Positions 10,454 through 61,165 of a DNA stretch of 64,000 nucleotides are shown here, one piece after another. The stretch spans positions 1,240,001-1,304,000 of the forward strand of contig NC_012796.1 of assembly GCF_000010665.1 (NCBI RefSeq), read 5' to 3'. The notes beneath the pieces were generated by a model. That model did not search any database. It was not told the DNA's origin and saw only the letters and a list, made by a program, of their open reading frames with translations. The translations under genes were made by a program, and so were the position numbers. Every line of letters starts with the position of its first letter. Positions within the stretch are counted from its first letter, which is position 1. The DNA comes from Solidesulfovibrio magneticus RS-1. Lineage in GTDB: Bacteria; Desulfobacterota; Desulfovibrionia; Desulfovibrionales; Desulfovibrionaceae.

Positions 10454-10554
10454 TAGCGTTCCTTAAAAAATACGGTAGTATTTTGAAGGAGAACCTATAG
10501 TTCCAAGGTCTTGCCTACGGAATGCCTTATGCGCTTTTTGCGGGCGCGACACTA
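10454..10554. mobile_element. MITE-like element with terminal inverted repeats, copy 1
   Basis: 101 bp. Left end TAGCGTTCC, right end GGGCGCGACACTA (inverse: TAGTGTCGCGCCC). Near the left end is the hairpin CCTTAAAAAATAC-GGTA-GTATTTTGAAGG (10461-10489 region). The right end forms the TAG stop of the NYN gene (10552-10554). Confidence 0.6.
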
Positions 10555-11151
10555 GGACATGACGCGGGCTTCGCGGGCCACTTCGTGGGCGAACTCATCG
10601 ATCCACCAGATGCGGTCGGCCCGGCACTGGAGGTCGGTGGAGACGCCGTTTTTAAAGACCAGCAGCTCGAAACGCTTGTTTTTTTCGGTGATGTACTCCA
10701 CGGCGTCGAGGAGGTCGCTGTCGCCGGAAGAGAGAATGAGCGTGTCGTAGTTCTCGATATGGGTCAGCGCCAGGGTGGCCAGGCCCACGTCGACGCCTTT
10801 TTGCTGTTCGCGGCTCAAGCGATGGGCCCGGTCGTTGGGGCAGGTGACGGGCACCTTGCGGCGGCACTGTTCGCAGTAGAGTTCGTTGATTTCGCTGGTG
10901 CGCAGTTCGTAGAGCTTGGTGATGATCTTCGGTCCCTGGGGCGGAGCGGAGCGCATCCAGTTGTAGAAGGCGATCTGGGATTCCGGGGTGGGATGGGGAA
11001 TGGAATTGAGGTAATAGGCGCGCCAGATGGGTGTTTCGGCTTCCAGTTTGTTGCGCAGCTTGACATAGTCAATGCTATATTCTCTGCTGAAATAGGATTG
11101 CCCCCGGTACATGTAGCCAGCGTCAATGAGCCACAATCGGCGATTGGTCAT
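10552..11151 (-). CDS. NYN-domain (LabA/DUF88-like) ribonuclease
   Basis: 199 residues. The PIN-like NYN fold is visible: Asp10 in RLWLIDAGYMYRG, QKGVDVGLATLAL near 115, and SGDSDLLDAVEYI near 137, which together supply the acidic metal-binding residues. A small zinc-ribbon-like insertion (CEQCRRKVPVTC) lies near 90. Family members cut or bind RNA; substrate unknown. It has AGGA ahead of ATG 11151 and is monocistronic, with a strong terminator about 140 bp after its stop. The stop codon TAG lies within the end of a MITE-like repeat. Confidence 0.8.
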   Translation of the reverse strand: MTNRRLWLIDAGYMYRGQSYFSREYSIDYVKLRNKLEAETPIWRAYYLNSIPHPTPESQIAFYNWMRSAPPQGPKIITKLYELRTSEINELYCEQCRRKVPVTCPNDRAHRLSREQQKGVDVGLATLALTHIENYDTLILSSGDSDLLDAVEYITEKNKRFELLVFKNGVSTDLQCRADRIWWIDEFAHEVAREARVMS

Positions 11152-11630
11152 CGGTACGTCCTGTTTTTTGGAATTTTTTAAGCGACAAATAAGCCAGCTT
11201 TAAAAGACGAGACAGCGGAACTATACAGGAACCAGCGGACCTGGGAAGAGGCTTCGCAAAAAAAATAATTAACTGTAAAATTAGATGGTTGTGACTTTAT
11301 GAAAAGCCAGTAGCGGGAAGGTTGCGACGGCTTGGCCGTGGGGCGGCAGACTGGCCAAGGGGCGTGCGTGCCGGGGCGTGTCGCCCTGGACGGCGTTGTG
11401 GGCCAGGAGACGCGGCTACGGGCAGGCCAGTGCCCGGGATATCTGTGTGAAGCTGTCTGCCGGAGAGGCTGGCGGTGCACTCCCTTGACAGGTGGGGCGA
11501 CAACCGTTTGCCGTCGTCCCGGGGTGATGCCAACCCGCCCAGCACGGCAGCTCGTCGAGGTGACTTTTGGCCCGGATTGGCGTAAGCTGGCCGCGTCCTG
11601 CCACCTCTAAAAGCGCCGCGCCGAGGTCCC
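11152..11630. other. divergent intergenic region, 479 bp
   Basis: AT-rich from 11165 to 11300, GC-rich after that. It must carry promoters for the NYN gene (minus) and the Csd4-like gene (plus). A TATAGT hexamer read on minus near 11220 and TTGACA at about 11485 on plus are candidate elements, but I find no well-spaced pair. Confidence 0.4.
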
Positions 11631-13022
11631 ATGCGTTTGCTCACGGCTCTGCTTGTCCTGCTTTTCGCCGCCACGGCCGCGCCCTGCGGCAACCTCGACT
11701 TTACCCTGCACAAGCTCGACTCCGGCCGCCCCGGACCGACCATCCTGGTCATCGGCGGCATCCAGGGCGACGAACCGGGCGGATTCTCGGCGGCGGCCTT
11801 GCTGGTCTCCCACTACAAGATCAACTCCGGCGCGGTCTGGGTGGTGCCTAATCTCAATTTCGTCAGCATCATCCGCTGTTCGCGGGGCGTGTACGGCGAC
11901 ATGAACCGCAAGTTCGCCGACCTCGACCCGGGCGATCCGGAATACGCCGCCGTGCAGAAGATCAAGGCCATCATCCGCGACGAAAAGGTCGACGCGGTGC
12001 TGCACCTTCACGACGGCTGGGGCTACTACAGCCCGACCGTGGTCAACGAATGGCAAAATCCCCTGCGCTGGGGCCAGTCGGTCATCATTGACCAGGACAC
12101 CGCCGAAGCGCCGCGTTACGGCAACCTTCTGGAGCTGGCCGGCCGGGCCGTGGCCGCCGCCAACGAGCACCTCTACGAACCGCTGCACGCCTACCACGTC
12201 AAGAACACCCATACCCATGACCTCAACAGCGAAACGGCCAAGGAAATGGCCAAGACGCTGACCTATTTCGCCATCGGCCAGGGCAAGCCGGCCTTTGGCA
12301 TCGAAGGCAGCAAAAACCTGCCGCCGCCCATGCGGTCGTACTACCATCTGCGGGTCATCGAGTCGTTCTTCAAATCCTTTGGCCTGGAGTACGAACGCAC
12401 GTTCGAGCTTGGCGCGCCGCAAGTGGCCGAGGCCCTGCAACAGAATGTGGCGGTGTCGTTTTTTGGCGACAAGATGTTTCTCGATCTGCGAAACGCCCGG
12501 GAACGGCTGCGCTACATTCCGCTCAAAAAGGACAGCGCCGTGGAATACCGGCCGTCCAGCCCCATCCTGGCCCTGGTGTCGGCGGACAAAAGCCTCAAGG
12601 TGTATTTCGGCAACACCAACGTGACCGAGCTTGATCCGCAGTTCGTGGAGTTCGACGCGAGTCTGGCCGCCGTGCCTATGGATATCGACGGCGCGCGCCG
12701 GGAGGTGCCCTTCGGCCGGGTGGTGGATGTGCGGCAGGGCTTTTCCGTGGCCAAGGGCTCGGACTACCGGGTCAACGTCATCGGCTTTTCCAGGCCGGGC
12801 CTGACCGACGAAGCCGATACGGTCATCGTCCGGGGCGATTTGAAAAAGGAATTTTCCGTGGACAAGGCCGGCCTCGTCTACCGGGTGGAAGTCTACCGGG
12901 GCGAGAAGTTTTGCGGCATGATCCTGGCCAACTTCGTGGCTGACGCGCCGCGCCTGGCCGCGCCCGACGACAAGCTCCTGCGAAAGCTCAAAAAGACCGG
13001 CGAAATCCACCTCGGCCGGTAG
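11631..13022 (+). CDS. M99-family (Csd4-like) carboxypeptidase, peptidoglycan trimming
   Basis: 463 residues with a signal peptide (LLTALLVLLFAATAAPCG). The zinc site of Helicobacter Csd4 is reproduced with its unusual Gln ligand: Gln45 and Glu48 in GGIQGDEPGG and His127 in VLHLHDG, with candidate catalytic Glu225 in FGIEGSK. In Csd4 the ligands are Gln46, Glu49, His128. Two beta-rich accessory domains follow (~260-463), as in Csd4. Csd4/Pgp1 remove the terminal DAP from tripeptide muropeptides and are needed for helical shape; a curved-cell role is inferred for this vibrioid lineage. Periplasmic. Apparently monocistronic. Confidence 0.85.
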   Translation: MRLLTALLVLLFAATAAPCGNLDFTLHKLDSGRPGPTILVIGGIQGDEPGGFSAAALLVSHYKINSGAVWVVPNLNFVSIIRCSRGVYGDMNRKFADLDPGDPEYAAVQKIKAIIRDEKVDAVLHLHDGWGYYSPTVVNEWQNPLRWGQSVIIDQDTAEAPRYGNLLELAGRAVAAANEHLYEPLHAYHVKNTHTHDLNSETAKEMAKTLTYFAIGQGKPAFGIEGSKNLPPPMRSYYHLRVIESFFKSFGLEYERTFELGAPQVAEALQQNVAVSFFGDKMFLDLRNARERLRYIPLKKDSAVEYRPSSPILALVSADKSLKVYFGNTNVTELDPQFVEFDASLAAVPMDIDGARREVPFGRVVDVRQGFSVAKGSDYRVNVIGFSRPGLTDEADTVIVRGDLKKEFSVDKAGLVYRVEVYRGEKFCGMILANFVADAPRLAAPDDKLLRKLKKTGEIHLGR

Positions 13023-13111
13023 CCAGTCTCCTCGCCAGCGGCGCGGCCTGAATCTCTCCCCTTTCTATAGACCGAAGAGATTAAACGACAATACAGCTTG
13101 ACATTGTGAGT

Positions 13112-14335
13112 CTATAAGGATCTTTTGTCACAAAATCCAATAGCGAGGCCGGACTTGCTCTGATAAATGCGAAACATGAGCTTGAACTGTATGGCGTTTC
13201 TGGTCTCAATGCTTGATATTTTTCGTTTTAAATCATTGCTTAGCTCTGTCCAGTGCCATTTCGGTATAGAGCAAATTATTTCAACTGTAGATGAAAATGC
13301 TTCTTTTTGGAAATGGAGGATCTCTTCATATTTTTGGTATACTGCATATTTGACTACGTCTTCTGAAATACCAATGAACACGAAGCAATTAATGCCTGAG
13401 AAACGAACAATTCCAGTGTAGTTATGGTTAATGACGTATGACTTGCCCAGGAAAAAAGTGTCAATATTGTATTTTCCTCCAATTCTATATTGGTTGAATG
13501 GTTCGCGGTGACTGTTGAGGAGTGGAATGTTGTCGAATTCAAAAGGATCTTTTGCATTGTCAATCAGGTTAGTCCTGTTAAGAAGTGTCGCTGATAAATT
13601 TGAGCGGGGGCTGATGTAACTTGTCCACGCGGATAAATATGATAACCTGTTTAGTAGTTTAGTTTCTTGTGGAGACCTGTCGTATGGTGTTGGTTCGGGG
13701 TCTAGGATCCAGCATCGTATTGGATGTGAATTGCTGCTCACTGCAGCAATTGTTCCGTACATTAGTGGTGTTTGTTGAGATTTAGAACGAACTTGTTTTT
13801 TCTTTTCCTCAATGCTTTTCTTGTGACTAGATATTGAACTATTTTTTTCGGTGTTGTCATTGCTGCAGTTTCCTTTTGTCTCGATTTGGATTATATTATT
13901 TCCATCGCTTGCAATTTCGTAGTCTAGTGTTTTAAATTTATTTTGCTCTGGGATTTTTCTCCAATCAGCCCCTGTTAGCCCATGTATTTTATTGACGACA
14001 GAGAGCCCAATCCCTTCGCCGATTCTTTCTGTCATAGCGTTGTTGAGAGGTAGTGCCACTGGGTTAGCAACTATAGATTTATTATTTAACAGGATAAATC
14101 CATCCAACTCCTTATGTGCCAGATCGATCTTTCTGGATATTGATTCGTAGCTATCGTAACCACTAAGGTTCGGTCGTTTTTTGTAGAAGAGATAATAGGT
14201 GAAAAACTCTGCGAAGGGAATGTCGCATCCCGTTGTGACGAGTTGATCAATAGTCTTAAAAGATGGATAGTTGCTCAAAAGTTCACGGTGTGTTTTGTTG
14301 TAATACTGAAGAGTAATTTTTATATCAGCATCCAT
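13112..14335 (-). CDS. AT-rich orphan gene, possible PD-(D/E)XK-type nuclease
   Basis: 407 residues, with base and codon use very different from neighbours (rich in AAT, ATA, TTT codons), so recently acquired. No signal peptide or clear membrane segment. Residues ~150-170 read LDYEIASDGNNIIQIETKG, where an acidic residue followed by ExK on a strand fits the core of restriction-endonuclease-like folds; this is suggestive only. A Lys/Ser/Gln-rich linker lies at ~175-205. No partner gene is present, so a solitary defence or phage-related protein is one possibility. Product not recognised. Confidence 0.65.
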   Translation of the reverse strand: MDADIKITLQYYNKTHRELLSNYPSFKTIDQLVTTGCDIPFAEFFTYYLFYKKRPNLSGYDSYESISRKIDLAHKELDGFILLNNKSIVANPVALPLNNAMTERIGEGIGLSVVNKIHGLTGADWRKIPEQNKFKTLDYEIASDGNNIIQIETKGNCSNDNTEKNSSISSHKKSIEEKKKQVRSKSQQTPLMYGTIAAVSSNSHPIRCWILDPEPTPYDRSPQETKLLNRLSYLSAWTSYISPRSNLSATLLNRTNLIDNAKDPFEFDNIPLLNSHREPFNQYRIGGKYNIDTFFLGKSYVINHNYTGIVRFSGINCFVFIGISEDVVKYAVYQKYEEILHFQKEAFSSTVEIICSIPKWHWTELSNDLKRKISSIETRNAIQFKLMFRIYQSKSGLAIGFCDKRSL

Positions 14336-14864
14336 GGTAGATCCTGTTGGTACAGTTAGTTAACAAAGCATGTTGCTGTGATGTCCGTCAATTAAAGGGA
14401 ACCGTATGCTAAGCTATGTGTGCTGTGTTTTCGGCCCACATCCTGAACGCTATTCGATGAGCATATTTATTTCAATGTATTTATTTTTAGCAAAGTTGAG
14501 GCTAGGGTTACGGAAAACCTGAGCGCAAGAGCTCTTTCCTGTAACTTGAATATCAATTGCCAGATTTTGAAGAATCCTCAAAAATTCCGCAACAAATAAA
14601 TTGCTCTATGCTGCCACGCACTAACTGACCTAAAAGTGCATGCACGGTTTATTCTAAATCATAGCACTTCCCGGACGGCACGCCCCGCCTTCGGTGGCCC
14701 AGGCGGCGCGACTTCCCGTCGTGACGCCGTAATCCCTTGCCAGAAACTTCCCTTTGTCTGTATCCTGTCAGGCAAGATATCCACTGCGGTATCCGGCGCG
14801 GCGCACTGCACAGTCGACGCCAGGCACTGCCGTACCCAAGGCACTCAACCGAGAGGAGTATGGA
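14336..14864. other. AT-rich then GC-rich intergenic region, 529 bp
   Basis: 14336-14660 is AT-rich and continues the foreign-looking composition of the preceding gene; the composition changes near 14665. No credible ORF, tRNA or integrase is seen. The right part must hold the promoter of the DUF1254 gene. Confidence 0.45.
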
Positions 14865-16325: not shown

Positions 16326-16451
16326 GCTGTAGCGCCAAGAACGCCATGGGGTGAGGGTGTAGGCGCGACAAACGCTGTCGACGCCTTTACTGACACGACG
16401 GCTGGCCGGGCGGTGGCCGGAAAAACACCAGCCGCGTTTGCCGCAAACGCC

Positions 16452-16489
16452 AAACGGCCCGGGAATCGTCGGATTCCCGGGCCGTTTTT
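16452..16489. terminator. bidirectional Rho-independent terminator
   Basis: 16-bp stem 16452-16467 / 16472-16487 with loop GTCG, A-run before and T-run after. It lies between the convergent DUF1254 gene and paaK and can serve both. Confidence 0.85.
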
Positions 16490-16538
16490 CTCTATGGGGC
16501 TTGGCTGTCCCCCTCGGCGCTGTGCAGGAGCGGGACCG

Positions 16539-17950: not shown

Positions 17951-17967
17951 ATCTTCTCTTAATCTCT

Positions 17968-18820: not shown

Positions 18821-18889
18821 TTCTGTCATGTCCGCGAAAACCAGTATTTTCTAAAAAAATACTATCGTATTTTTTCAGGGGCGACGCTA
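18821..18889. mobile_element. MITE-like element with terminal inverted repeats, copy 2
   Basis: 69 bp. Right end GGGGCGACGCTA carries the TAG stop of livG (18887-18889); left end resembles TGTCATGTCC. The hairpin AAAAAATAC-TATC-GTATTTTTT lies at 18854-18875, and the adjoining ACTGGTTTTCGC (minus) is shared with copy 4. Confidence 0.6.
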
Positions 18890-19657
18890 GTCGTCCTCGC
18901 CGAGGTAGGCCTTGATGACTTCGGGATTGGCCTGGATGGCCTCGGGCGTGCCGGCGGCCAGGGGATGGCCGAAATGGAGCACCGTCACATAGTCGCTCAC
19001 ACTCATGACCAGGTCCATGTCGTGCTCGACAAGGCCCACGGCCACGCCGCGGCGGTCGCGGATGGCCCGGATGAGGACGCCCAGTTCGGCGGTCTCCTTG
19101 GAATTGAGGCCAGCGGCCGGTTCGTCGAGGAGCAGAAGCTTGGGCGAGGCGGCCAGGGCCCTGGCCATTTCCAGCAACCGCTGCTTGCCGTAGGGCAGAT
19201 CCCCGGCCGGGGCGTGGGCGAGGTCGGCCAGCCCGACGAACTCCAGGCAGTCCAGGGCCGCCTCGCGGCATTCCCGCTCGGCCCGGCGGAAACCGGGCGT
19301 GCGCAAAAGGCTCGCGGCCACGGAGTAGCGCGTGAGCGCATGCCGGCCGGCCATGACGTTTTCCAGCACCGACATGGAGGTGAAGACTTCCAGGTTCTGG
19401 AAGGTGCGCACCACGCCGGCCCCGGCCCGTTTGTGGGGCGGCAGGCCTGAAATGTCGGTCCCATCCAGGAGCACCGCGCCGGAGGTCAAGGGGACCATGC
19501 CGGTGATGGCGTTTAAAAGCGTGGTCTTGCCCGCGCCGTTGGGGCCGATAAGCGCGGTCACCGTGCCCGGGGCGATGGTGAAGTCGGCCTCGGTCAGGGC
19601 ATGGATGCCGCCGAAACGGACGGTGGCGGCCGTAACGTCCAGCAGTGCGGCGGTCAT
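18887..19657 (-). CDS. livG: branched-chain amino-acid-type ABC transporter ATPase LivG
   Basis: 256 residues. Walker A GPNGAGKTTLLNAITG, VVRTFQNLEVFTSMSV Q-loop segment typical of LivG, a signature region that is divergent from LSGGQ (APAGDLPYGKQRLLEMARAL), Walker B LLLLDEPAAGLN. The start overlaps the livM stop by ATGA. The TAG stop falls in the end of a MITE-like repeat, and ~230 bp with two repeats separate it from livF. Confidence 0.93.
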   Translation of the reverse strand: MTAALLDVTAATVRFGGIHALTEADFTIAPGTVTALIGPNGAGKTTLLNAITGMVPLTSGAVLLDGTDISGLPPHKRAGAGVVRTFQNLEVFTSMSVLENVMAGRHALTRYSVAASLLRTPGFRRAERECREAALDCLEFVGLADLAHAPAGDLPYGKQRLLEMARALAASPKLLLLDEPAAGLNSKETAELGVLIRAIRDRRGVAVGLVEHDMDLVMSVSDYVTVLHFGHPLAAGTPEAIQANPEVIKAYLGEDD

Positions 19658-31048: not shown

Positions 31049-31155
31049 TCGTGTCGTGTCCGCCGAAAGCGCCTGGGGCGCTTTTGGGGCCAGGGACTAA
31101 CGGCATGAAGGGGTCTTCAACATTACGCGCGTATTGATGAAGGGACGCGGCACTA
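31049..31155. mobile_element. MITE-like element, copy 3 (diverged)
   Basis: 107 bp. Right end GGGACGCGGCACTA gives the TAG stop of the CBS gene (31153-31155); left end GTGTCGTGTCC fits the terminal repeat. The inner hairpin is changed to CATTACGC/GCGTATTG but keeps its place next to the right end. Confidence 0.45.
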
Positions 31156-31614
31156 GAGATTTTTCACCAGGAATTGCAAAATCATGCGCCGGCTGATCTC
31201 CCCCACCAGCACCCCGTTGGGATCAATGACCGGCACGGCCGGAATGCCGCGCTCCACAATGAGCTCCCCGGCCATGACGAAGAGATCCTCGGGATGGGCA
31301 AAGGGATAGTCGGCGTCCATGAGTTCGCCCACCGGCGTGTCCGAACTGGCGGCCATGTTGCGGCGCAGGGCGTCCAGGAGCGCCTCCCGACCGTCGAGAT
31401 GCCCGGCCCTGGCCTGGGACGCCACCTCGGGCGAGACGATAAGGGAGAGAAACCTGTGGATGGTCACCACCCCAAGCAACCGGTCGCAGTGGTCCACCAC
31501 ATACGTGTTGCGAAAGGTGTTGTTCATGCCGCCGTACCAGATGAGCACGTGCCCGACCGGCGCTTCGGGCCGCACCTTGATGACCGTGGTGCGCATGATG
31601 TCGGCGATCTGCAT
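31153..31614 (-). CDS. CBS-domain pair protein
   Basis: 153 residues starting MQIADIMRTTVIKVRPEAPV at 31614. Two CBS motifs: MRTTVIKVRPEAPVGHVLIW with TYVVDHCDRLLGVVTIHRF, and LMDADYPFAHPEDLFVMAGE with IPAVPVIDPNGVLVGEISRR. An extra helical segment (~75-95) separates them. Such stand-alone Bateman modules bind adenine nucleotides and regulate partners; the target is unknown. Divergent from the cupin gene. Confidence 0.85.
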   Translation of the reverse strand: MQIADIMRTTVIKVRPEAPVGHVLIWYGGMNNTFRNTYVVDHCDRLLGVVTIHRFLSLIVSPEVASQARAGHLDGREALLDALRRNMAASSDTPVGELMDADYPFAHPEDLFVMAGELIVERGIPAVPVIDPNGVLVGEISRRMILQFLVKNL

Positions 31615-31765
31615 GGAAGCCTCGGGCGTGGATTGTGAAAAAAAGTACTTAAGTCTTACCAGCCCGAACCCGGCCCGTAAAGGGATCGCTTGGCCTTTAG
31701 GGCAGGATCGTCCAAGATGGTTGCGGGGTTTTCCGGCATCACCCGAAAAAACGGAGTGAACCGCC

Positions 31766-32158
31766 ATGCAAGACACTGTCGCTTTCGTCCTGACCGAGGG
31801 CCGCGCCATCCACACCCTGACTGATGTCCGCGACGCCGAAGCGTTGCCCTGGCAGGACCATCCGGCCTTTGCCGGCGTGCGCCTGCGCCATCTGGTCACC
31901 GCCGCCGACACCGAAGGCCAGCTCAGTTGCCACATCGTGCGCCTGGCCCCCGGGGCCAGCCTGGCCGGCCACGTCCACGACGGGCAATGGGAGCTCCACG
32001 AGGTCGTCTGCGGATCGGGCACGGCCGCATTGGCCGGCCGGCAAACCGACTACGCCCCCGGCGTCACGGCCGTCATCCCCCGGGGCACGCCCCACGCCGT
32101 CACGGCCGGCGACCAGGGCCTGTGCTTGCTTGCCAAGTTTTTCCCGGCCTTGCTGTAA
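31766..32158 (+). CDS. single-domain cupin protein
   Basis: 130 residues with GGAG before ATG. Cupin motif 1 HVHDGQWELHEVVCGSG near 68-85 and motif 2 PGVTAVIPRGTPHAV near 98-112 give the metal-binding His/Glu set. Function unassigned; the next gene, an AraC-type regulator with its own cupin-like N-terminus, begins 23 bp downstream, so the two may handle the same small ligand. Confidence 0.85.
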   Translation: MQDTVAFVLTEGRAIHTLTDVRDAEALPWQDHPAFAGVRLRHLVTAADTEGQLSCHIVRLAPGASLAGHVHDGQWELHEVVCGSGTAALAGRQTDYAPGVTAVIPRGTPHAVTAGDQGLCLLAKFFPALL

Positions 32159-44406: not shown

Positions 44407-46080
44407 TCAGGAATCGGGGCCAAGTTCGCCGGAGCGTTTGACGGCGCGAAGGAGCCGTAGGCCGAGCAGCACGGCGGCGGCGCACCCGAGCGCCCCGAAG
44501 AGCGAGATGCCGAAGACGAGCGGCGGCACGCGGCTGGCCAGCACCTGGCAGGAGCCGAGAAACAGCGCCGCCGTGACGATGCCGTAGACCAGGCGGTTTA
44601 TGGTGGCGTCCAGGCCCCGGTGGACGAGGTGCACGTCGAGCCGGCCCTCGCGGGCGCGGCGCAGGATCTCGGCGGCGTCGCGGGGGAAACTCTCGACCAG
44701 GGCGTTCCAGTCGCGCCAGCTGCGCCGGGCGCGGGTGAAAAGCGCCCCGGGCGAAAGCCGACGGGCGATGATCTTGCCGGCGTAGGGCGCGATGACGTCA
44801 ATGAGCGAAAAGCCCGGGGAGAGCGTTCGCGACGCGCCTTCCAGCACCACAAAGACTTTGATGAGATGGGCCACCACCGGCGGCAGCAGGATGCCGTGGC
44901 GGCGCACGATGGCGGCCACGTCGGCCATGGCCCCGCCCAGGTCGAACGCGCCAAGCTCCTGGCTGGCGTAATCGGCCACGAAATCCTCAATGTCGGCCCT
45001 AAGCGCCGCCCGGTCCAGGCCCGGCGGCAGCCGGCCGATGCGCATGACCTGTTCGGTCAGCCCCTCGGCGTCGCCCTCGGCCACGGCCAAAAGCGCGTCC
45101 TCCATGGCCCGCCGGGTGCGCTCGTCGATGCGCCCGACCATGCCGCAGTCCAGGATGCCCAGCCTGTCGCCGGGCAGCACCAGCAGATTGCCGGGATGCG
45201 GGTCGGCATGGAAGAAGTTGTCGCGGAAAATCATCTCCAGGAACACGTCGGCGGCAAGCTTGGCCATGGCCGTGCGCCGGGCCGCGGCCTCGGGCGAAAG
45301 CTCCCCGGCCAGACGCGACAGCGGCTCCCCGACCAGCTCTTCCATGGTCAGCACTTCCCGGGCGCAGCGCTCGGGATAGGGGCGCGGAAAGGCCACGCCC
45401 GGCTCGGAAGCGAAATTGGCCGCGAAATGGCGCAGATTGCGCTCCTCGCGCACGAAATCGAGTTCCCGCAGGATGGTGCGGCGCATCTCGGCGGCCACGG
45501 CCAGGGGTTGATACAGCCGCAGCTCCACCACCCCCCGCTCGGCCAGTTCGGCCAGGCCCATGAGGATGTCGAGATCGGCCCGCACCCGCTCCTCGATGCC
45601 GGCATGGCGCACCTTGACCACCACCGCCGTGCCGTCCGGCAGCCTGGCCCGATGCACCTGGCCAATGGAGGCGCTGGCCATGGGCACGGGATCAAAGCCC
45701 TCGAAGAGTTCTTCCACCGGCGCGCCAAGCGCCTCGCGGATCGTGCGCTCCACCGCCTCGGGCGCATCGGGTTCGGTGTCGGCCCGCAGTCTGGACAGTT
45801 CCGCCGCCACCTCCGGCCCCACGAGGTCGGCCCGGGTGCTGAGTATCTGGCCAAGCTTGATGGCCGTGCCCCCAAGCTCGGTCAGGGCCAGCCGCAGCCG
45901 TTCCTCACGCTTCAGCGTCGCCAGACTGGCCCCCGACGGGCTGACCAGCAGGTCTTTTAAAAACGCCGGGTCCGTGGCGGCCAGAAACTCGGCCAGGCCG
46001 TAACGCGCCAGCACCCCGGCGATTTCCCGGAATCTGCGGGCGTTTCTGGCGAAATGCGGTATCGAGGCGAGTGACAGCAT
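44407..46080 (-). CDS. ABC1/UbiB-family atypical kinase
   Basis: 557 residues. KxGQ motif (GGTAIKLGQILSTRADLVG), Ala-rich loop ASASIGQVHRA, invariant Lys in VVKVRHAG, catalytic FFHADPHPGNLLVL and LDCGMVGRID. Two C-terminal membrane helices (~500-550). UbiB proteins support isoprenoid quinone synthesis or lipid distribution; a sulfate reducer uses menaquinone, so a ubiquinone role is unlikely. A perfect AT hairpin from MITE-like copy 4 sits directly upstream of the AAGGGA ribosome-binding site. Confidence 0.92.
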   Translation of the reverse strand: MLSLASIPHFARNARRFREIAGVLARYGLAEFLAATDPAFLKDLLVSPSGASLATLKREERLRLALTELGGTAIKLGQILSTRADLVGPEVAAELSRLRADTEPDAPEAVERTIREALGAPVEELFEGFDPVPMASASIGQVHRARLPDGTAVVVKVRHAGIEERVRADLDILMGLAELAERGVVELRLYQPLAVAAEMRRTILRELDFVREERNLRHFAANFASEPGVAFPRPYPERCAREVLTMEELVGEPLSRLAGELSPEAAARRTAMAKLAADVFLEMIFRDNFFHADPHPGNLLVLPGDRLGILDCGMVGRIDERTRRAMEDALLAVAEGDAEGLTEQVMRIGRLPPGLDRAALRADIEDFVADYASQELGAFDLGGAMADVAAIVRRHGILLPPVVAHLIKVFVVLEGASRTLSPGFSLIDVIAPYAGKIIARRLSPGALFTRARRSWRDWNALVESFPRDAAEILRRAREGRLDVHLVHRGLDATINRLVYGIVTAALFLGSCQVLASRVPPLVFGISLFGALGCAAAVLLGLRLLRAVKRSGELGPDS

Positions 46081-46166
46081 GGCGGCGCGTCCCTTAAAAA
46101 ATACGAGAGTATTTTTTAAGAAAAATTACTGGTTTTTCGCTGTTGCTTCTCGTGGACGCGGCGCGA
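46080..46166. mobile_element. MITE-like element, copy 4
   Basis: 87 bp abutting the ubiB-like start codon. Perfect 12-bp hairpin CTTAAAAAATAC / GTATTTTTTAAG at 46093-46120 with loop GAGA; then ACTGGTTTTTCGC shared with copy 2; right end GGACGCGGCGCGA. Confidence 0.6.
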
Positions 46167-46204
46167 GGGTCTGGGGCGGAGAGGCCAAGGAGGAAGAGAA
46201 GAAT

Positions 46205-46248
46205 GCCTCCGGCGGCCGGGAGGGGGTAACCCCCTCCCGGACCCTCCC
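46205..46248 (+). repeat. GC double-hairpin 3' element, copy 9
   Basis: GCCTCCGGCGGCC then GGGAGGGGGTAACCCCCTCCC palindrome then ACCCTCCC. Lies between folD and the ubiB-like gene, reversed relative to these minus-strand genes. Confidence 0.85.
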
Positions 46249-46297
46249 TGAAAGGGGGGATGGACGGCCGGTGGTATATCACGCGCGCCCTTGGGGC

Positions 46298-47461: not shown

Positions 47462-47497
47462 CTCACGAAGCCCCGCCTGGCCCCTTTCCCCCTTTCA

Positions 47498-47541
47498 GGG
47501 AGGGTCCGGGAGGGGCTTAGCCCCTCCCGGCCGCCGGAGGC
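47498..47541 (-). repeat. GC double-hairpin 3' element, copy 11
   Basis: 29 bp past the eno stop in standard orientation, after the purine tract GAGAAGAAAAGAAGAGAAAG. Stem is GGGAGGGGC/GCCCCTCCC. Confidence 0.85.
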
Positions 47542-47569
47542 AGTCTTCGTCTTTCTCTTCTTTTCTTCT

Positions 47570-49771
<2,202 letters not shown>

Positions 49772-50563: not shown

Positions 50564-50568
50564 GGCGG

Positions 50569-54225: not shown

Positions 54226-54270
54226 GATTCTGGGATGAGGGGTATCCGGGACAGGAGAAAACGCTGGGGG

Positions 54271-54845: not shown

Positions 54846-54937
54846 GGCGAACCTCCCAATGACGCGCAGCGGCGTCGGACCTTTGCCGACAGCGTCGCTT
54901 GTGCCCAAGGCCCTACGGCCTTGTCTGTCAGGGTTTT

Positions 54938-54978
54938 GTGTATAAACTTTGTGTATACACGGTTCGTGCTTGCGTCAA
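54938..54978 (-). promoter_or_regulatory. mazEF promoter/operator
   Basis: Two copies of GTGTATAMAC, one a perfect dyad (54951-54960), spaced 13 bp apart. On minus, TTGACG (54978-54973) precedes TATACA (54957-54952) with a short 15-bp spacer. Dyad repeats over the promoter fit MazE/MazEF autoregulation. Confidence 0.55.
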
Positions 54979-55046
54979 GGGCGCGAGGTGTCGTCCAGTC
55001 TGATCGCGCCTGCCGACACGCAGGCCGGACAGGCGCGACGAGATGC

Positions 55047-55703
55047 CTACGCCTTGGGATACCCCACGCACTGGGCCATGATGATGTGCTGCTTCTCGCC
55101 AAGGCCCATGGCCTTGGACAGGGCGGGCAGGTCGATGCTGGCCCGCACCACTGTGCCCAGGCCCATGACCGCGCAGTAGAGATACACGTTCTGGCTCACA
55201 TAGCCGGTGTCGGCCCAGGCCAGGTTGGCGCGTTCCTGGTCGGTCTTGCCCGCCACCTTGCCCATGTCCGCCACGTAGATCAGATCGAGCGGCGCTTCGG
55301 CCACGTAGGACTGGGTGCCGGTCAGGGCCCGGATGTCCTGGGAACCCTTGCGCGACAGCATGTGGTCCTTGGGTTCGTAGAGAAAAAAGCCGTCCTTCTT
55401 GACCACCCAGACGTCGATTTCCTGTTTGTTGACGGCCGTGGGCGCGGTGCGCTTGCCCGATTCCTTGCGGTTGACGCCGCAGGCCGCCCACAATAGGCCC
55501 GAAAGCACCTCGGCCGGGATGTCCTTGTCGGCATAGCTGCGGATGGACTGCCGGGCGCGCAGGGCCTCTTCCAGGGTCTTGCCGCCCGGCAGGGCCGGCG
55601 GCGGCAGGATGTCGGCATTCTGGGCCAGGGCGTCGCGCGCCCCGCCGATCCCCAGGCCGACGCACAGCGTGCCGGCCGTTTTCATGAACGCTCTTCTGTC
55701 CAC
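55047..55703 (-). CDS. Tat-exported SagB/nitroreductase-family oxidoreductase
   Basis: 218 residues from GTG 55703, which has AAAGGAG six bases upstream; an ATG at 55724 is possible. N-terminus DRRAFMKTAGTLCVGLGIGG is a Tat signal. FMN-fold segments: ALRARQSIRSYADKDIPAEV, LSGLLWAACGVNR, QNVYLYCAVMGLGTVVRA. Periplasmic flavin protein; reaction unknown. Its 3' end is duplicated as the fragment at 54042. Confidence 0.88.
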   Translation of the reverse strand: MDRRAFMKTAGTLCVGLGIGGARDALAQNADILPPPALPGGKTLEEALRARQSIRSYADKDIPAEVLSGLLWAACGVNRKESGKRTAPTAVNKQEIDVWVVKKDGFFLYEPKDHMLSRKGSQDIRALTGTQSYVAEAPLDLIYVADMGKVAGKTDQERANLAWADTGYVSQNVYLYCAVMGLGTVVRASIDLPALSKAMGLGEKQHIIMAQCVGYPKA

Positions 55704-56027
55704 TGGGCACTCCTTTCGAGGCATGGGAACCTCGGTGGGAGCAGGCTAGGAGCCGGCGCGGCCGATGTCCAGCCGTGGGCGGGGCGCGGCGGCGTCTGTC
55801 ATGGGCAGGAAAATGCGTGGAGCGCTGGCTGGGGCTTGGGGAAAACGCCGGAGTTCCGGGTCGTTGTCATGACAATGGTCGCGCGGCGAAGAATGTGTCG
55901 CGCGGCAGTATGAAATTTTCGTCAGAATTCGCGCAGCTCGCCGCATCCGGCGTCGTCGCCGGTCCCGCCCAAGGAGCGCGGGCAGAAGACCAGCACCCCC
56001 TCCCCCTTTTACCCCTTTTCTCCATTC
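55704..56027. other. intergenic region, ~320 bp
   Basis: GC-rich, no gene seen. Must hold the promoter of the nitroreductase-family gene. Confidence 0.4.
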
Positions 56028-56066
56028 GGGGGGTCTGGGGGCCTCAGGCCCCCAGCCGCCGGAGGC
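56028..56066 (-). repeat. GC double-hairpin 3' element, copy 12
   Basis: 20 bp past the HD-GYP-like gene stop, after the purine tract AAGAGAAAAAGAGGAAGAT; standard orientation on minus. Confidence 0.85.
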
Positions 56067-56085
56067 ATCTTCCTCTTTTTCTCTT

Positions 56086-57171
56086 TTACTCCTGACTGCC
56101 TGCCGCCTCGGGCGGCAGTTCGCCGTCCTTGGCCGCGTCGTTGCCTTTGCCGAGCATATCGGCGTCGGCCAGGATCATGATGAGCCGTTTGAACATGGCC
56201 CGATCGAAGGTTTCCTTCTTGGCTTCCATCTTGCGCAGGGCCTCGAAGGGCGGGTAGGCCGGCCGCCAGACGCAGGCCCGGGTCAGGGCGTCGTAGGTGT
56301 TGCACACGGCCAGCGCCTTGACGAAAAACGGGATGCCGGCCGCCGGCAGGCCGGCCGGGAAGCCCTTGCCGTCCTCCTGTTCGTGGTGGAACAGGATGCA
56401 GTGCAGTGTTTCCGTGGGCAGGGGCAGGCCCACCAGCAGCCCCACGCCCATGGCCGGGTGGGATTTGAACAGCGCTTCTTCCTCGGGCGTCCAGCTGTCA
56501 GGGCGGCGGTCCATGAGTCCCGTGGGCAGGCCGGTCTTGCCGATGTCGTGCAACAGCGCCCCGACGCCGACCTTGACCAGCAAGTCCTCGGTCATGCCCT
56601 TGTGGTCCATGAGCATGATGGAGGTGAGCACCATGGAGGCCAGGCCGTGCTGGTAGTCCTGGTAGCCCTTGCTGATGAGCGGCGCGAGGTTCTGCATGGC
56701 CCCGGGGCTTTGCAGGAAGCCGATGGACTGGCGCACGAGCTTGCCCACCTGGTCGAACCGGGCGCGGCTGATGGAGTGGGGCAGCTTTTCTTCCAGCACG
56801 CCGCGCACCTGCTGGCTGGCGCTGGCGTGCCAGGCTTCGGCCCGGTCGGCCACGGGAATGGACTCGTCGAGGAGCAGCTCGCCCAGGTTGTCGCGCAGGT
56901 AGTTTTCGTAATGGCGCAGTTCGCCCCGGTGGATATAGACGTTCTCAATGTTGCTGGCCCGCAGCCGGCGCAGTTGGTCCTGGGTGAAGGCTCCGCCCCG
57001 GGTGGCGAACAGCACCAGGCCCTGGCCCTTGCGGACGTAGAGGGAGAATTTCCCCGTGCCCCAGGGGCGCAGGTAGGCGGTCTTGATGGGCGCGTAGGAC
57101 TTGAGTTCCTGGGCCGGGATGGCGTCATCGACCGGGGACGGCGGCGCGGTTGGCGCGGGTTTGCCGGTCAT
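56086..57171 (-). CDS. HD-GYP-type phosphodiesterase variant
   Basis: 361 residues, overlapping the upstream gene by ATGA. N-terminal ~130 residues resemble the DUF3391-like region preceding HD-GYP domains. Catalytic domain ~160-330: GALLHDIGKTGLP, SHPAMGVGLLVGL, FHHEQEDGKGFPAGLP. The HD pair is intact, but GYP reads GFP. Family members degrade cyclic-di-GMP. Coupling to the Pat-like acetyltransferase links second-messenger turnover to protein acylation (inference). Confidence 0.88.
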   Translation of the reverse strand: MTGKPAPTAPPSPVDDAIPAQELKSYAPIKTAYLRPWGTGKFSLYVRKGQGLVLFATRGGAFTQDQLRRLRASNIENVYIHRGELRHYENYLRDNLGELLLDESIPVADRAEAWHASASQQVRGVLEEKLPHSISRARFDQVGKLVRQSIGFLQSPGAMQNLAPLISKGYQDYQHGLASMVLTSIMLMDHKGMTEDLLVKVGVGALLHDIGKTGLPTGLMDRRPDSWTPEEEALFKSHPAMGVGLLVGLPLPTETLHCILFHHEQEDGKGFPAGLPAAGIPFFVKALAVCNTYDALTRACVWRPAYPPFEALRKMEAKKETFDRAMFKRLIMILADADMLGKGNDAAKDGELPPEAAGSQE

Positions 57172-59867
57172 GGCAGGCCGCCTTCGCCGTCGGCGGTTTC
57201 CTGCAGGGGCAGACGCATTTCCACGACCTCGTCGTCATAGTTGCGGACCACGGAAAAACCGAGCTTTTCGGCCAGCCCTTGCATCCCGCCATTTTCCATG
57301 AGCGCCTGGCCGGTGATTTCTTTCGTGCCCCGGCCCCGGCAGTAGCGGATGATCTTTTCCATGAGGGTGCGGCCAAGGCCGGCCCCTTTCTGGTCCGAGC
57401 GCACGATGACGGCGAATTCCGCCGTGGCGTTGTCGGGCCGGGTGGAGGCGCGCACCACGCCCAGGGTCTCGGGCTTGCCGCCTTGGCCCGGGGCGGTGGC
57501 GATGAAGGCCATTTCGCGCTCGTAATCGATCTGGGTGAGCTTGGCCATTTCGGCGTGGGACAGGGTGGTCACCACGCCGAAGAACCGGTAGCGCAGGTCT
57601 TCGGGAGACAGGTGCTTGAAAAATTCAAAATGGGCCGGTTCGTCCTCGGGCCGGATGGGGCGCAGGAGCACCTCGCGGCCGTTTCGCAGGACCGCCTTCT
57701 CTTCCAGTTCGCGCGGATAGGGCCGGATGGCCAGGCGGTGGGGATTGGGGTTTTCCTCGGGCGAGAGCCGGATGGCCGCGCCGATGACCGTGACGCCGCC
57801 CTGGTGGGCCAGGACGGGGTTGAGGTCGATGGCGGCCACCCGTTCGAGGTCGGCCACGCACTGGGAAATCTGGTTGAGCGTCAGGTAGAGCGCGCCGAGG
57901 TCCGCCGGCGGCTGGCCGCCGACGCCGGCCAGGGCGGCCGAGACCCGGGTGCGGCCGACGAGGTCCTTGGCCAGGGACATGTTCAGCGGCGTGAGCGCCA
58001 CGGCCTTGTCCCGGGTGACCCGGGCGGCCAGCCCGCCCTGGCCGAAGACGACGTAGGGGCCGAAAACCGCATCGACCCGGGCCTGGATGGTGACTTCGTG
58101 GGCGGCCGTGCGTCGGCCCATCTCTTGGATGACGTAGCCTTCGATGCGGGCCTGCGGCACATGCTCCAAGGCGCGGCGGCGGGCGGCCTGGGCCGCCTCG
58201 CGCACGGCCTCGGGGCCGGTGACGTCGAGGACGATGCCGCCGACGTCAAAGGGTTTGGGGATGTCCGGCGACACGATCTTGACGGCCACGGGATAGCCCA
58301 GGGCGTCGGCGGCGGCCACGGCGTCGTCGATGTCTTCGGTAAGCTGGGAGGCCACGGCCCGCACGCCGTAATAGCCGAGCACTTCCTTGGCTTCGGGGTC
58401 GGTCAGCGTCAGCCGGCCTTCGGCAAAGGCCCGCTCCACCACGGCCCGGGCCGCCTCGGGGTCCGGGGCGAAGGCTTCCGGGAGGCTGGCCGGCATCTCC
58501 ATGAGGAGTTCCTGATTTTTGCGGTAGCGGGCCAGCTGCACGAAGGCCGACACGGCCTGGTCCGGCGTGGCGTAGGCCGGCACGCCGGCGTTGTTTAAAA
58601 TCTTGAGCGCGTCGCCGCCGGCCGGATCGTAGCCCATGAAGCAGGCCAGCACCGTGCGGCTGGTCTTGGCCGCCACCTCGGCCACGGCCTTGGCCGTTGC
58701 CTCGGGCGACACCCCGGGAAAGGGCACATGGACGACCAGCACGGCGCTGCCGCCGGGAATGCGCAAAAGCGCCCGTAAGGCATCGGCATAGAGGCTTGGC
58801 GCGGCGTCCACGCCCATGTCCACCACGCCCTTGCGCGACCAGTTGGGGCCTAAAAGCGGCGAGAGCGCGGCGTCGGCCTCGGCGTCGAAGGGGGCCAGCC
58901 GCCCGCCGCCGTCCAAGAGCGCGTCAGCGGCCATGACGCCCACCGAACCGCCGTTGGTGAGGATGGAAAGATGGTCGCCGCTAAGCGGCCTGGCTCGGGC
59001 CAGGGTTTCGGCGGCGTCGAAAAGCGTGTCGATCTCCCCCACCCGCAACATGCCGGCCCGGCGGAAGGCCTCATCGTAGACCTCATCGCGCCCTTCGTCC
59101 GGCCCCGGCGGAAAAAGCGTCCACAGCTTGCGCCCGGGTTTGACGACCAGAAGCGGCTTGTTGCGGGCGGCGGCCCGGGAAGCGCTCATAAACGACCGGG
59201 CGTCGGTGACGGACTCGACGTAGAGCAGAATCGAGCGCGTATTGGGGTCCGAGGCCATGTAGTCGAGGATGTCGGCGTACTTGAGGTCCACCCGGTCGCC
59301 CAGGGACAGGATGTGGGAAAACCCGACGCCCTTGGTGTGGGCCCAGTCGAGGACGGCGGTAAAAAGCGAGGCGGACTGGGAAATAAAGGCCATGCGGCCT
59401 GGACGCGCGTCGCGGTTGGCCAGGGAGCAATTGAGCCCGATGCCGGGAACGAGCAGGCCCATGCCCGAAGGCCCGAGGATGCGGATGCCCGACGGCGCGG
59501 CCGCTTCGATCATGCGCTGCTGCAAATCGCGCTTGGCGGCCGGTTCGAGCTTGGCATAGCCCGGGGGCAAGGCCACGGCCGCGCCCACGCCGCGCCGGCC
59601 GAGTTCGCGCAGGGTCTCGGGCACGGACTCCGGTCCGGTGCAGATGACGGCCAGATCCGGGGTCAGCGGCAGGGTCTCGACGGAGCGGTAGCAGGTCACG
59701 CCGTCGATCTCGGCCAGGTCCGGGGCTACGGGCATGACCGGGCCGAGAAACTTGCCGCCAAGCAGGTTTCGCATCACCACCGCGCCCACATGGGCGGGGT
59801 CGGCCGATGCGCCGACCACGGCCACGGAGTTGGGACGGAACAAGGCGTCCAGGCTTCGGGCGCTCAA
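57168..59867 (-). CDS. Pat-like fusion: acyl-CoA synthetase (NDP-forming)-like domains plus GNAT
   Basis: 899 residues from TTG 59867 (AGGGAG nine bases upstream; no suitable ATG). CoA-binding domain ~5-135 (FRPNSVAVVGASADPAHVGA), succinyl-CoA-ligase-like middle, ATP-grasp ~465-690 (YYGVRAVASQLTEDIDDAVA; GYPVAVKIVSPDIPKPFDVG), GNAT ~730-890 (SDQKGAGLGRTLMEKIIRYC). The catalytic His motif SHTG of true ADP-forming synthetases is absent, as in Salmonella Pat, so lysine acetylation/acylation with CoA sensing is expected rather than ATP synthesis. Confidence 0.9.
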   Translation of the reverse strand: MSARSLDALFRPNSVAVVGASADPAHVGAVVMRNLLGGKFLGPVMPVAPDLAEIDGVTCYRSVETLPLTPDLAVICTGPESVPETLRELGRRGVGAAVALPPGYAKLEPAAKRDLQQRMIEAAAPSGIRILGPSGMGLLVPGIGLNCSLANRDARPGRMAFISQSASLFTAVLDWAHTKGVGFSHILSLGDRVDLKYADILDYMASDPNTRSILLYVESVTDARSFMSASRAAARNKPLLVVKPGRKLWTLFPPGPDEGRDEVYDEAFRRAGMLRVGEIDTLFDAAETLARARPLSGDHLSILTNGGSVGVMAADALLDGGGRLAPFDAEADAALSPLLGPNWSRKGVVDMGVDAAPSLYADALRALLRIPGGSAVLVVHVPFPGVSPEATAKAVAEVAAKTSRTVLACFMGYDPAGGDALKILNNAGVPAYATPDQAVSAFVQLARYRKNQELLMEMPASLPEAFAPDPEAARAVVERAFAEGRLTLTDPEAKEVLGYYGVRAVASQLTEDIDDAVAAADALGYPVAVKIVSPDIPKPFDVGGIVLDVTGPEAVREAAQAARRRALEHVPQARIEGYVIQEMGRRTAAHEVTIQARVDAVFGPYVVFGQGGLAARVTRDKAVALTPLNMSLAKDLVGRTRVSAALAGVGGQPPADLGALYLTLNQISQCVADLERVAAIDLNPVLAHQGGVTVIGAAIRLSPEENPNPHRLAIRPYPRELEEKAVLRNGREVLLRPIRPEDEPAHFEFFKHLSPEDLRYRFFGVVTTLSHAEMAKLTQIDYEREMAFIATAPGQGGKPETLGVVRASTRPDNATAEFAVIVRSDQKGAGLGRTLMEKIIRYCRGRGTKEITGQALMENGGMQGLAEKLGFSVVRNYDDEVVEMRLPLQETADGEGGLP

Positions 59868-60046
59868 TGCGGCGGTCTCCCTGTTGGCGGTTGCGGTTTG
59901 GGCGAGGATAGAAGCCTCTGGCGGCCAAAGCAAGGGGTTTCGCCGAATCGCCGGGCCGCGCCCACCTTCCAGGGGCTTGTATTGACAGGAACTACGGCCG
60001 GGGGCAGAGTTCAAAGCATCGGCAAAGGGCCGTCTGGGAGGACGTC

Positions 60047-60844
60047 ATGGAAGCCACGACCAGCCTTGTCACGGACAACGAGTTTTTTTCCGCCGAGCGC
60101 CGCGACCGTGTTCTTGTCGTGCGCGGCAAGCCGCACTTCACCCGCCATGCCGGGGATCTCAAAAAGATCGACGCCTTTTTCGACCACCTGGAAATCATCG
60201 CCCGCACCGACGAGGTCGGGGTGGTGGCCTTTATCGGGTCGCCGGAAAAATCCGGCGGCGACGACACCCTGGAATTCTTCGAAACCCTGATCGGCTCGCG
60301 CCGGGAAGACTACCTGCTCCAGCGCCTGCTCAACCTCGTCAACAACTATGCCCTGACCATGGCCGGCCTCAACAAGCTCACCATAAACGCCGACAGCGGC
60401 CGCATCTCGCTTTTCCATTTGAGTATGTCCCTGGCCTGCGACTACCGCATCGTGGCCGAGGGCACGGTGTTCGAAAACACCTTCGTGGAACTCGGAACCC
60501 TGCCCAAGGGCGGTTGCGGCTATTTCCTGTCGCGCTTGCTTGGCGGCGGCAAGGCGGCCGAGGTGCTCACCTGGCCACGGTTCTCGGCCGAAGAGGCCCT
60601 GACGCTGGGCATCGTGGACCGCATCGTGCCGCGGGACAAGCTGGAGCAAACGGCCCTGGACATGGCCGACCACTACCAGGAAGAACAGGTGGCAGCCATG
60701 CTGGCCGTGCGCCGGCTGCTCAAAAGCGACGTCAACGAACTGCGCCGCTCCCTGGAGACAGAAGACATGCTGCTTTTAAACCGCGTCAACTCTCCGGCCT
60801 TCCGCAAAGTCCTGGAAGCCCGCGCCGCTGCGCGCGGGCGATAA
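60047..60844 (+). CDS. enoyl-CoA hydratase/isomerase-family protein
   Basis: 265 residues, GGAGG before ATG 60047. Crotonase fold: VVAFIGSPEKSGGDDTLEFF, SLACDYRIVAEGTVFENTFV, LGTLPKGGCGYFLSRLLGGG, GIVDRIVPRDKLE. The oxyanion-hole region around SGRISLFHLSMSLACD departs from the usual GGG/GAG pattern, and the second catalytic Glu position reads ELGTLP, so the substrate may not be an ordinary enoyl-CoA. Divergent from the Pat-like gene. Confidence 0.85.
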   Translation: MEATTSLVTDNEFFSAERRDRVLVVRGKPHFTRHAGDLKKIDAFFDHLEIIARTDEVGVVAFIGSPEKSGGDDTLEFFETLIGSRREDYLLQRLLNLVNNYALTMAGLNKLTINADSGRISLFHLSMSLACDYRIVAEGTVFENTFVELGTLPKGGCGYFLSRLLGGGKAAEVLTWPRFSAEEALTLGIVDRIVPRDKLEQTALDMADHYQEEQVAAMLAVRRLLKSDVNELRRSLETEDMLLLNRVNSPAFRKVLEARAAARGR

Positions 60845-61162
60845 GGGGTAAGTGAGGGAGAGCAAGAGGGGGATGCCTCCGGCGGCCGGGAGGGGCTAAG
60901 CCCCTCCCAGACCCTCCCTGCAAGGGGGTAAAGGGGCTGGCGGCGACGCCTTTGAGGGCGGGAGTGTGGAACGCCCTGGAAAGAGCGCGGGCGTCTCGCG
61001 CGGAGCAAGGAAACGGCCCGGTCGGCAGTCCGCATGGACGGTCGGCCGGGCCGTCCGCGTTTAGCGTCACGTCCCTTAAAAAATACGAGAGTTTTTTTAA
61101 GAAATATATGATTTTAAGATGTTGTCTGCGAAATGTCCGATGTGCGCTTCGTGGGCGCGACA
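60845..61162. other. intergenic region, 318 bp, with two repeat families
   Basis: Contains GC element copy 13, a GC hairpin at ~61010-61060 (ACGGCCCGG / CCGGGCCGT) and MITE-like copy 5. No gene. Confidence 0.6.
60875..60918 (+). repeat. GC double-hairpin 3' element, copy 13
   Basis: 31 bp past the hydratase stop, after GAGGGAGAGCAAGAGGGGGA; standard orientation. Stem GGGAGGGGC/GCCCCTCCC. Confidence 0.85.
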
Positions 61163-61165
61163 CTA
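61062..61165. mobile_element. MITE-like element with terminal inverted repeats, copy 5
   Basis: 104 bp, clearest ends: left TAGCGTCACGTCCC, right inverse TAGTGTCGCGCCC (10 of 13 match, all differences transitions). Hairpin CTTAAAAAATAC-GAGA-GTTTTTTTAAG at 61075-61101. The right end forms the TAG stop of the sensor-kinase gene. Confidence 0.65.

What the first reader, a model, noticed from the sequence alone, without database searches (positions are those of the whole stretch)
10454..61165. MITE-like family with terminal repeats that provide stop codons
Five elements (10454-10554, 18821-18889, 31049-31155, 46080-46166, 61062-61165) share ends TAGYGTCRCGYCCC in inverted orientation and, in four, an inner AAAAAATAC/GTATTTTTT hairpin. 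In four the TAG of the terminal repeat is the stop codon of the adjoining minus-strand gene (NYN, livG, CBS, kinase). Insertion into 3' ends, or co-option of the end as a stop, would explain this. No transposase is in the window.
Basis: partly seen in the sequence, partly recalled or inferred. Interest (0 to 1): 0.78.

Follow-up and report, generated by a model that had tools for sequence, protein, structure and literature searches.

The report
IS630-type mini-transposons rebuilding stop codons
The five repeats are members of a large family of tiny, gene-less jumping elements whose ends match those of IS630-family transposons; they land in the rare sequence CTAG, which in this GC-rich genome is often a gene's stop codon, and their own ends re-form that stop codon, so genes survive the insertion.

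Summary
The five stretches belong to a dispersed family of ~105-bp non-coding elements: about 100 copies in this genome, with relatives across the genus and in related genera. Sister genomes give empty sites: the elements inserted at a pre-existing CTAG. In 42 of 75 near-complete copies an ORF stops exactly at an element end. CTAG is scarce in the window (22 sites, 64 expected); 7 of 18 sites outside the elements are predicted stops, 5 of them of genes with a Pfam match above cut-off. The end CTAGTGTCGCG also bounds 85-112-bp elements with other interiors in Methanosarcina and many bacterial phyla. In one Methanosarcina genome similar ends bound IS630-family insertion sequences. Best reading: miniature IS630 (Tc1/mariner)-type elements inserting at C-TA-G, the element's terminal G re-forming TAG. 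New member of a known kind; pneumococcal RUP is closest. Termini supplying TAG stops are already in print for GTAG REPs. Unexplained: 32 of 48 intact Desulfovibrionaceae copies carry C instead of A beside one or both ends. No cognate IS630 was found in the genus, though no profile search was run there.

The parts
10452..10554 (+). E1, element copy, left end decayed
   Evidence: family model hit, bits 69.5; present in G025 and G150, not seen in G097/G133
10552..10554 (-). stop codon TAG of the NYN-domain gene (10552-11151 minus) formed by the right end of E1
18821..18889 (-). E2, internally shortened element copy
   Evidence: partial model hit, bits 34.4; longer orthologue in G025
18851..18878 (-). 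inner AT-rich hairpin A of E2
18887..18889 (-). stop codon TAG of the livG-like ABC ATPase gene (18887-19657 minus) formed by the left end of E2
31049..31155 (-). E3, strongly decayed element copy
   Evidence: family model hit, bits 47.3; shared with G025, G150, G109
31153..31155 (-). stop codon TAG of the CBS-domain gene (31153-32022 minus) formed by the left end of E3
46080..46166 (+). E4, element copy with a ~20-bp internal deletion and no TAG ends; abuts the predicted start codon of the ABC1-kinase gene (44407-46080 minus)
   Evidence: family model hit, bits 59; shared with G025, G150
46093..46120 (+). inner AT-rich hairpin A of E4
61062..61165 (+). E5, nearly intact element copy, recent insertion
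   Evidence: family model hit, bits 83.7; element absent from G025, G150 and G109
61075..61101 (+). inner AT-rich hairpin A of E5
61163..61165 (-). stop codon TAG of the histidine kinase gene (61163-62359 minus) formed by the right end of E5; the empty site in G025 also has TAG, in G150/G109 TGA

Best explanation
The elements are non-autonomous miniature transposons (MITEs) of IS630 (Tc1/mariner) type. Body: GTGTCGCG...CGCGACAC, ~105 bp, one or two internal hairpins, no gene. An IS630-type transposase acting in trans would cut the element out and paste it at TA within CTAG, duplicating TA (C-TA-[G...C]-TA-G). When that CTAG carries a TAG stop codon, the stop becomes TA plus the element's first G, again TAG, so the gene keeps its exact end. 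Coding insertions are lost by selection; stop-codon and intergenic insertions survive. SHOWN: dispersed family, insertion at CTAG by empty sites, stop = end in over half of the copies, end sequence shared (with 0-2 mismatches) with IS630 insertion sequences in a Methanosarcina genome. INFERRED: that an IS630 transposase moved the Desulfovibrionaceae copies, that the duplication is TA, and the part played by selection.
For: (1) Copies: 67 core hits against 3 in the reversed control; 135 model hits in the genome; 106 non-redundant alignments spanning at least 51 model positions. (2) Empty sites clean on both sides: CTAG at L126 (G025), L014 and L056 (G150) and E5 (G025). On the gene side only, the other flank having diverged: CTAG at L030 and L040, GTAG at L004 and L023. 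L004 in G150 reads GTAG|element|CTAG, as a TA duplication predicts and a 4-bp duplication does not. (3) Flanks: base -1 is C in 63 of 80, base +1 is G in 62 of 80. (4) Stops: 31 of 75 copies at the left end, 12 of 75 at the right end, 42 of 75 in all; of ORFs entering an element 43 stop exactly at the end and 3 further inside, so chance open frames do not explain it. CTAG occurs 22 times in 64 kb (Markov expectation 64); 7 of the 18 outside the elements are predicted stops, 5 with a Pfam match above cut-off. (5) The same end in 26 loci outside Desulfovibrionaceae. In 16 such genomes CTAGTGTCGCG gives 167 exact hits against 28 reversed, unevenly: 45:0, 25:2 and 23:4 in the best three, 5:10 in G297. 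(6) IS630: L290:954-2131 has such ends (left exact, right with 2 mismatches) and a two-frame transposase, NF033545 E 1.5e-21 (below its cut-off) and 9.1e-46 (above), PF13358 E 3.6e-27. A second one, L289:975-2319 (ends with 1 and 2 mismatches), has both ends like those of the 88-bp Methanosarcina elements. (7) IS630 transposition preferring TA in CTAG is the title of Tenzen & Ohtsubo 1991, seen only in the reference list of PMC2170065.
Against: No IS630 gene with these ends was found in Desulfovibrionaceae: among the 96 ends (<=1 mismatch) I see no facing pair 0.5-5 kb apart in G000 other than pairs of these short elements, but ends as divergent as the right end of L290 would be missed; tblastn on the loci fetched found IS630 only in L287, L289 and L290; whole genomes were not searched with an IS630 profile. 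The far copy of TA is often not TA: right-end T is G in 24 of 65 copies and C in none, while sister genomes show A>G over A>C at 463:131. Opposite a left-end stop the far end reads CGAG in 11 and CTAG in 4 of 31 copies. In 48 intact copies of 17 genomes (pattern allowing only A or C there) the end bases are A/A 16, A/C 18, C/A 9, C/C 5 (tallied by hand). Plain TA duplication does not predict this. The clean empty allele of the L020 site in G025 reads CTCG, not CTAG. Stops fall at left and right ends 31:12, where a palindromic target predicts parity. E5 lacks one base at its left junction.
Confidence: 0.8

Rival explanations
1. A Y1 (HUH) enzyme of the IS200/IS605 or TnpA-REP type moves a folded single strand: it cuts after CT, inserts between CT and AG without duplication, and the terminal A/C belongs to the element.
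For: The far end often differs from the target base; hairpin A shows compensatory changes (35 double changes against 14.8 expected, 20 of them Watson-Crick pairs against 1-6 in slid controls); TnpA-REP of Stenotrophomonas cleaves at CT (PMC8266576, passages).
Against: Y1_Tnp is found in 8 of 14 genus genomes and is missing in G080, G109, G150, G151, G152 and G121; all of these but G121 hold intact copies. No element was found in the 15 Y1 loci. Inverted ends with insertion in both orientations, and IS630 elements with similar ends, do not fit.
Confidence: 0.08
2. An ISAzo13-family transposase is the mobilising enzyme.
For: In L287 an uninterrupted ISAzo13 gene lies between two facing CTAGTGTCGCG ends, 2.26 kb apart.
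Against: The left end there looks like the right end of the IS630 element L290, with a 21-residue IS630 C-terminal remnant beside it, and the right boundary is a complete 88-bp element. PF07592 is in 3 of 149 family genomes, all of another genus, and in none of the 9 Solidesulfovibrio genomes sampled.
Confidence: 0.04
3. The repeats are host-maintained RNA or terminator elements at gene ends, spread by recombination rather than transposition.
For: Folds more stable than shuffles (z -1.3 to -4.0 for the five), location at gene 3' ends, some covariation in hairpin A.
Against: Precise empty sites, end sequences shared across phyla with different interiors, decay of most copies, no Rfam match at gathering score.
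Confidence: 0.04

Closest known systems
RUP (repeat unit of pneumococcus), IS630-Spn1 MITE
   Same: 107 bp, 108 copies, TIRs, TA target, ends like those of an IS630 element (PMC2229807, passages)
   Different: RUP has its proposed IS630 partner in the same species, here none was found; a stop-codon role for RUP was not in the passages seen; sequences were not compared here
IS630 family insertion sequences (Tc1/mariner)
   Same: ends shared with IS630 elements L289/L290; CTAG target preference (title of Tenzen & Ohtsubo 1991) and TA duplication (PMC2170065, passages)
   Different: no transposase gene; base beside the element often C
GTAG REPs / REPINs with RAYT
   Same: small, high-copy, inverted pairs in REPINs; [quoted passage not shown] PMC3116915, passages)
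   Different: no GTAG tag as consensus, no associated Y1 gene found, 105 bp with 11-bp shared ends
SMR-A small mobile repeats of Haloquadratum
   Same: ~110 bp, inverted ends, no gene, tens of copies (PMC3119063, passages)
   Different: SMR-As target palindromes of PATEs and IS605-type elements and have no known transposase relative

Membership tests
IS630-type MITE | short, non-coding, terminal inverted repeats, multicopy | tested here: met
IS630-type MITE | mobility: empty sites in relatives | tested here: met
IS630-type MITE | insertion at TA, preferably CTAG | tested here: met
   CTAG at four sites clean on both sides (L126, L014, L056, E5), CTAG or GTAG on the gene side of four more; one clean exception, CTCG at L020
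IS630-type MITE | TA duplicated at both ends | tested here: inconclusive
   16 of 48 intact copies have TA at both ends; 32 carry C for A at one or both
IS630-type MITE | ends shared with an IS630 element carrying its transposase | tested here: met
   L290 and L289 in one Methanosarcina genome only, with 0-2 mismatches in the 11-base end
IS630-type MITE | cognate transposase in the same or a sister genome | tested here: inconclusive
   no facing ends 0.5-5 kb apart at <=1 mismatch in G000; no IS630 protein hit in the Desulfovibrionaceae loci fetched; whole genomes not searched with an IS630 profile
REP/REPIN (RAYT-linked) | association with a Y1 (RAYT) gene | tested here: not met
IS200/IS605 derivative (PATE) | no terminal inverted repeats | tested here: not met
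   11-13 bp inverted ends

The most novel reading that the evidence does not exclude
One end sequence (CTAGTGTCGCG) defines a cross-domain class of ~85-112-bp non-autonomous elements whose interiors are freely replaced, and which persist because insertion into CTAG rebuilds the amber stop codon it splits; in Desulfovibrionaceae the base next to the element (A or C) travels with it, implying an end-joining step that ordinary IS630 transposition does not have.
Probability: 0.25. Interest if true: 0.62.

Novelty: new member of a known kind. Interest (0 to 1): 0.42.

Why it matters
It shows how a small parasite can spread to about 100 copies with little harm: a rare target that in GC-rich genomes is often a stop codon, and an end that re-forms the codon. 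The ends give a simple handle for annotating such elements across bacteria and archaea and for finding their transposase. The A/C end anomaly is a concrete, testable departure from the textbook IS630 product.

Tried and rejected
Full-length partner on plasmid contig C3 (facing ends 10.4 kb apart): rejected, because the similarity continues through the ends inside two inverted pieces of a Tn3-like transposase gene (named from recall). Four-base CTAG duplication: not supported, because far ends are often CGAG and L004 in G150 reads GTAG/CTAG. Blunt insertion with the A/C base owned by the element: kept as part of the Y1 rival; IS630 elements with similar ends made TA duplication the simpler reading. 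Ordinary mutation as the source of C: disfavoured by the sister-genome spectrum. ISAzo13 as partner: see rivals. RNAalifold on A2 found no pair, so model R1 is sequence only; pair counts were made in a script instead: hairpin A exceeds its controls in both measures; hairpin B exceeds them only in Watson-Crick double changes (17 against 3-11), the outer ends in neither. Plasmid blastn with one copy found no full match; viral contigs gave none. Paper searches for MITEs in Desulfovibrio, IS701 with YTAR (45), CTAG with stop codons (46), IS630 with CTAG and MITE (84), IS630 with MITE and stop codon (92) and IS630 with Methanosarcina (93) showed no description of this family in their listings; only 15 of 22 papers were listed, and the library lacks most subscription papers. 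Rows dropped: 13 of 106 extracted copies below score 40 were left out of the listing, and of the 93 listed only the 75 near-full ones entered its tally; duplicate loci were merged; for A2, 46 of 63 copies with a right end were used.

Full report
What is there. The window is G000:C2:1240001-1304000 of a 5.32-Mb, three-contig genome. The chromosome and plasmid lengths (5,248,049 and 58,704) match Solidesulfovibrio (Desulfovibrio) magneticus RS-1 as I recall them; no call names it. The five stretches align to one another in one orientation. Consensus of 46 copies: TAGTGTCGCGTCCCTTAAAAAATACGAGAGTATTTTTTAAG (left end and hairpin A), an A/T-rich middle, then CGAAACGCC..GCGCTTTTCGTGGACGCGACACTA.

Beyond chance? 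In the window alone the end motif is not: 6 matches against 4.7 expected. In the genome the hairpin-end core has 67 hits against 3 for the reversed pattern, a sequence model gives 135 hits at E<=0.01, and 106 non-redundant alignments remain after merging. In 149 genomes of the family 22 have hits, including all 9 of the genus that were sampled; 13 others lie in related genera, some with weak scores only. Tandem copies occur in G088.

Insertion sites. Sister genomes G025, G150 and G109 are 93-95% identical over the parts of the window that aligned at >=85%. E5 is absent from all three; G025 reads GCGTT-CTAG-GCGTC there, G150 and G109 have no TAG. E1 and E4 are shared with G025 and G150, E2 with G025 (longer copy) and in part with G150, E3 with all three. 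In the more distant genus members looked at, E1 (2), E2 (5), E4 (3) and E5 (2) were not seen; E3 could not be compared. Of 28 further loci queried (typed query incomplete for the last), 20 stretches were fetched for 15 elements. Sites clean on both sides read CTAG at L126, L014 and L056 and CTCG at L020. L030 and L040 (CTAG) and L004 and L023 (GTAG) are readable on the gene side only. L008, L009, L021, L012 and L123 were not clean; L011 carries the element in G150 and its left part in G025; L060 is a relic in G025.

Stops. Of 75 near-complete copies, 31 have an ORF of at least 100 codons with coding-like third positions ending exactly at the left TAG and 12 at the right one (one copy has both); 42 of 75 in all. 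Of the ORFs entering an element, 43 stop at offset 0 and 3 inside; chance open frames would stop inside about twice as often as at the end. CTAG occurs 22 times in the window, against 203 expected from base composition and 64 from a Markov estimate. Of the 18 sites outside the elements, 7 are predicted gene stops; 5 of these genes match Pfam above cut-off, one below it and one not at all. A CTAG-targeting element therefore meets stop codons often, and coding insertions are presumably lost. With a TA target the split stop is re-formed by the element's first G. Outside the family, in 8 of 14 bacterial and 2 of 12 archaeal loci an open frame of at least 100 codons ends at an element TAG; other CTAGs of the same 26 loci: 27 of 120 (no coding test there). 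[quoted passage not shown]

Ends across phyla. A pattern of two facing ends 62-90 bp apart, at least one of them CTAG, gave 41 stretches in genome contigs; about one is expected by my arithmetic for uniform composition. Fifteen are Solidesulfovibrio/Desulfovibrio; 26 are Methanosarcina and other Euryarchaeota, Acidobacteria, Chloroflexi, Bipolaricaulis, Eisenbacteria, Nocardioides, Amycolatopsis, Actinopolymorpha, Luteimonas, Polaromonas and Pseudomonas. Interiors differ between host groups, by eye. In 16 of these genomes the 11-mer has 167 exact hits against 28 reversed, most of them in G288, G295 and G292; G297 has fewer than its control (5 against 10). Hosts with a single pair may include chance matches.

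The partner. In the Methanosarcina genome G288, two elements with such ends carry IS630 transposases: L290:954-2131 (left end exact, right end with 2 mismatches; NF033545, PF13358) and L289:975-2319 (1 and 2 mismatches; 47% identical over 173 residues). The ends of the second resemble both ends of the 88-bp elements of that genus. An ISAzo13 gene in L287 first looked like the partner but sits beside an IS630 remnant and next to a complete short element. In the other 17 of the 20 stretches fetched no IS630 was found. None was found in the Desulfovibrionaceae stretches fetched, and the last genome search went to ISAzo13, so an IS630 profile search of the genus is still to be done.

What does not fit. 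In Desulfovibrionaceae the base beside the element is A or C at either end: of 48 intact copies in 17 of 24 genomes 16 are A/A, 18 A/C, 9 C/A and 5 C/C (the pattern allowed only A or C). Outside the family 25 of 26 are A/A, though that pattern required at least one CTAG. Across copies of this genome the right-end T is G 24 times, A 3, C 0 of 65, whereas sister genomes show A>G 463 and A>C 131. Ordinary decay does not explain it. The left:right bias of stops (31:12) may follow in part: C at the right end abolishes a stop there.

Structure. Hairpin A keeps pairing: 35 double changes against 14.8 expected, 20 Watson-Crick against 1-6 when slid. The outer ends (19 against 18.8; Watson-Crick 11 against 1-11) do not; hairpin B is mixed (31 against 26.5; 17 against 3-11). 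Other subfamilies have hairpins of other sequence at the same place. Stable stem-loops are usual in bacterial MITEs (PMC2229807, passages).

Filing. By size, copy number, TA-type target and IS630-like ends this is a RUP-like IS630 MITE family (RUP: 107 bp, 108 copies). Y1/REP membership was tested and not met.

Noticed in passing
window 46190-46259, and many loci (for example E4 right flank): A second dispersed GC-rich repeat (GCCTCCGGCGGCCGGGGG...CCCCC) with near-identical copies in G000, G025 and G150.
   Followed up: no
window ~55999-56085, ~47482-47588, ~60856-60943: Further short stretches with several to many ~85-95% identical copies in the genus, apparently other repeat families.
   Followed up: no
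window 46080-46166: E4 abuts the predicted ATG of the ABC1-kinase gene and places AAGGGACG upstream of it, so an element may supply a ribosome-binding sequence.
   Followed up: no
L120 1395-1709 (G088:C1:1758273-1758582): Three element copies in direct tandem.
   Followed up: no
L011 and its orthologues L198, L199: One orthologous insertion reads CTAG, CTAA and CTCG at its left end in G000, G150 and G025; in G025 the gene would read into the element.
   Followed up: partly
G000:C2:3474951: A lone CTAGTGTCGCGTCC, apparently at the end of a reading frame, with no element body behind it.
   Followed up: partly
window, all: CTAG is about ninefold rarer than base composition predicts.
   Followed up: partly
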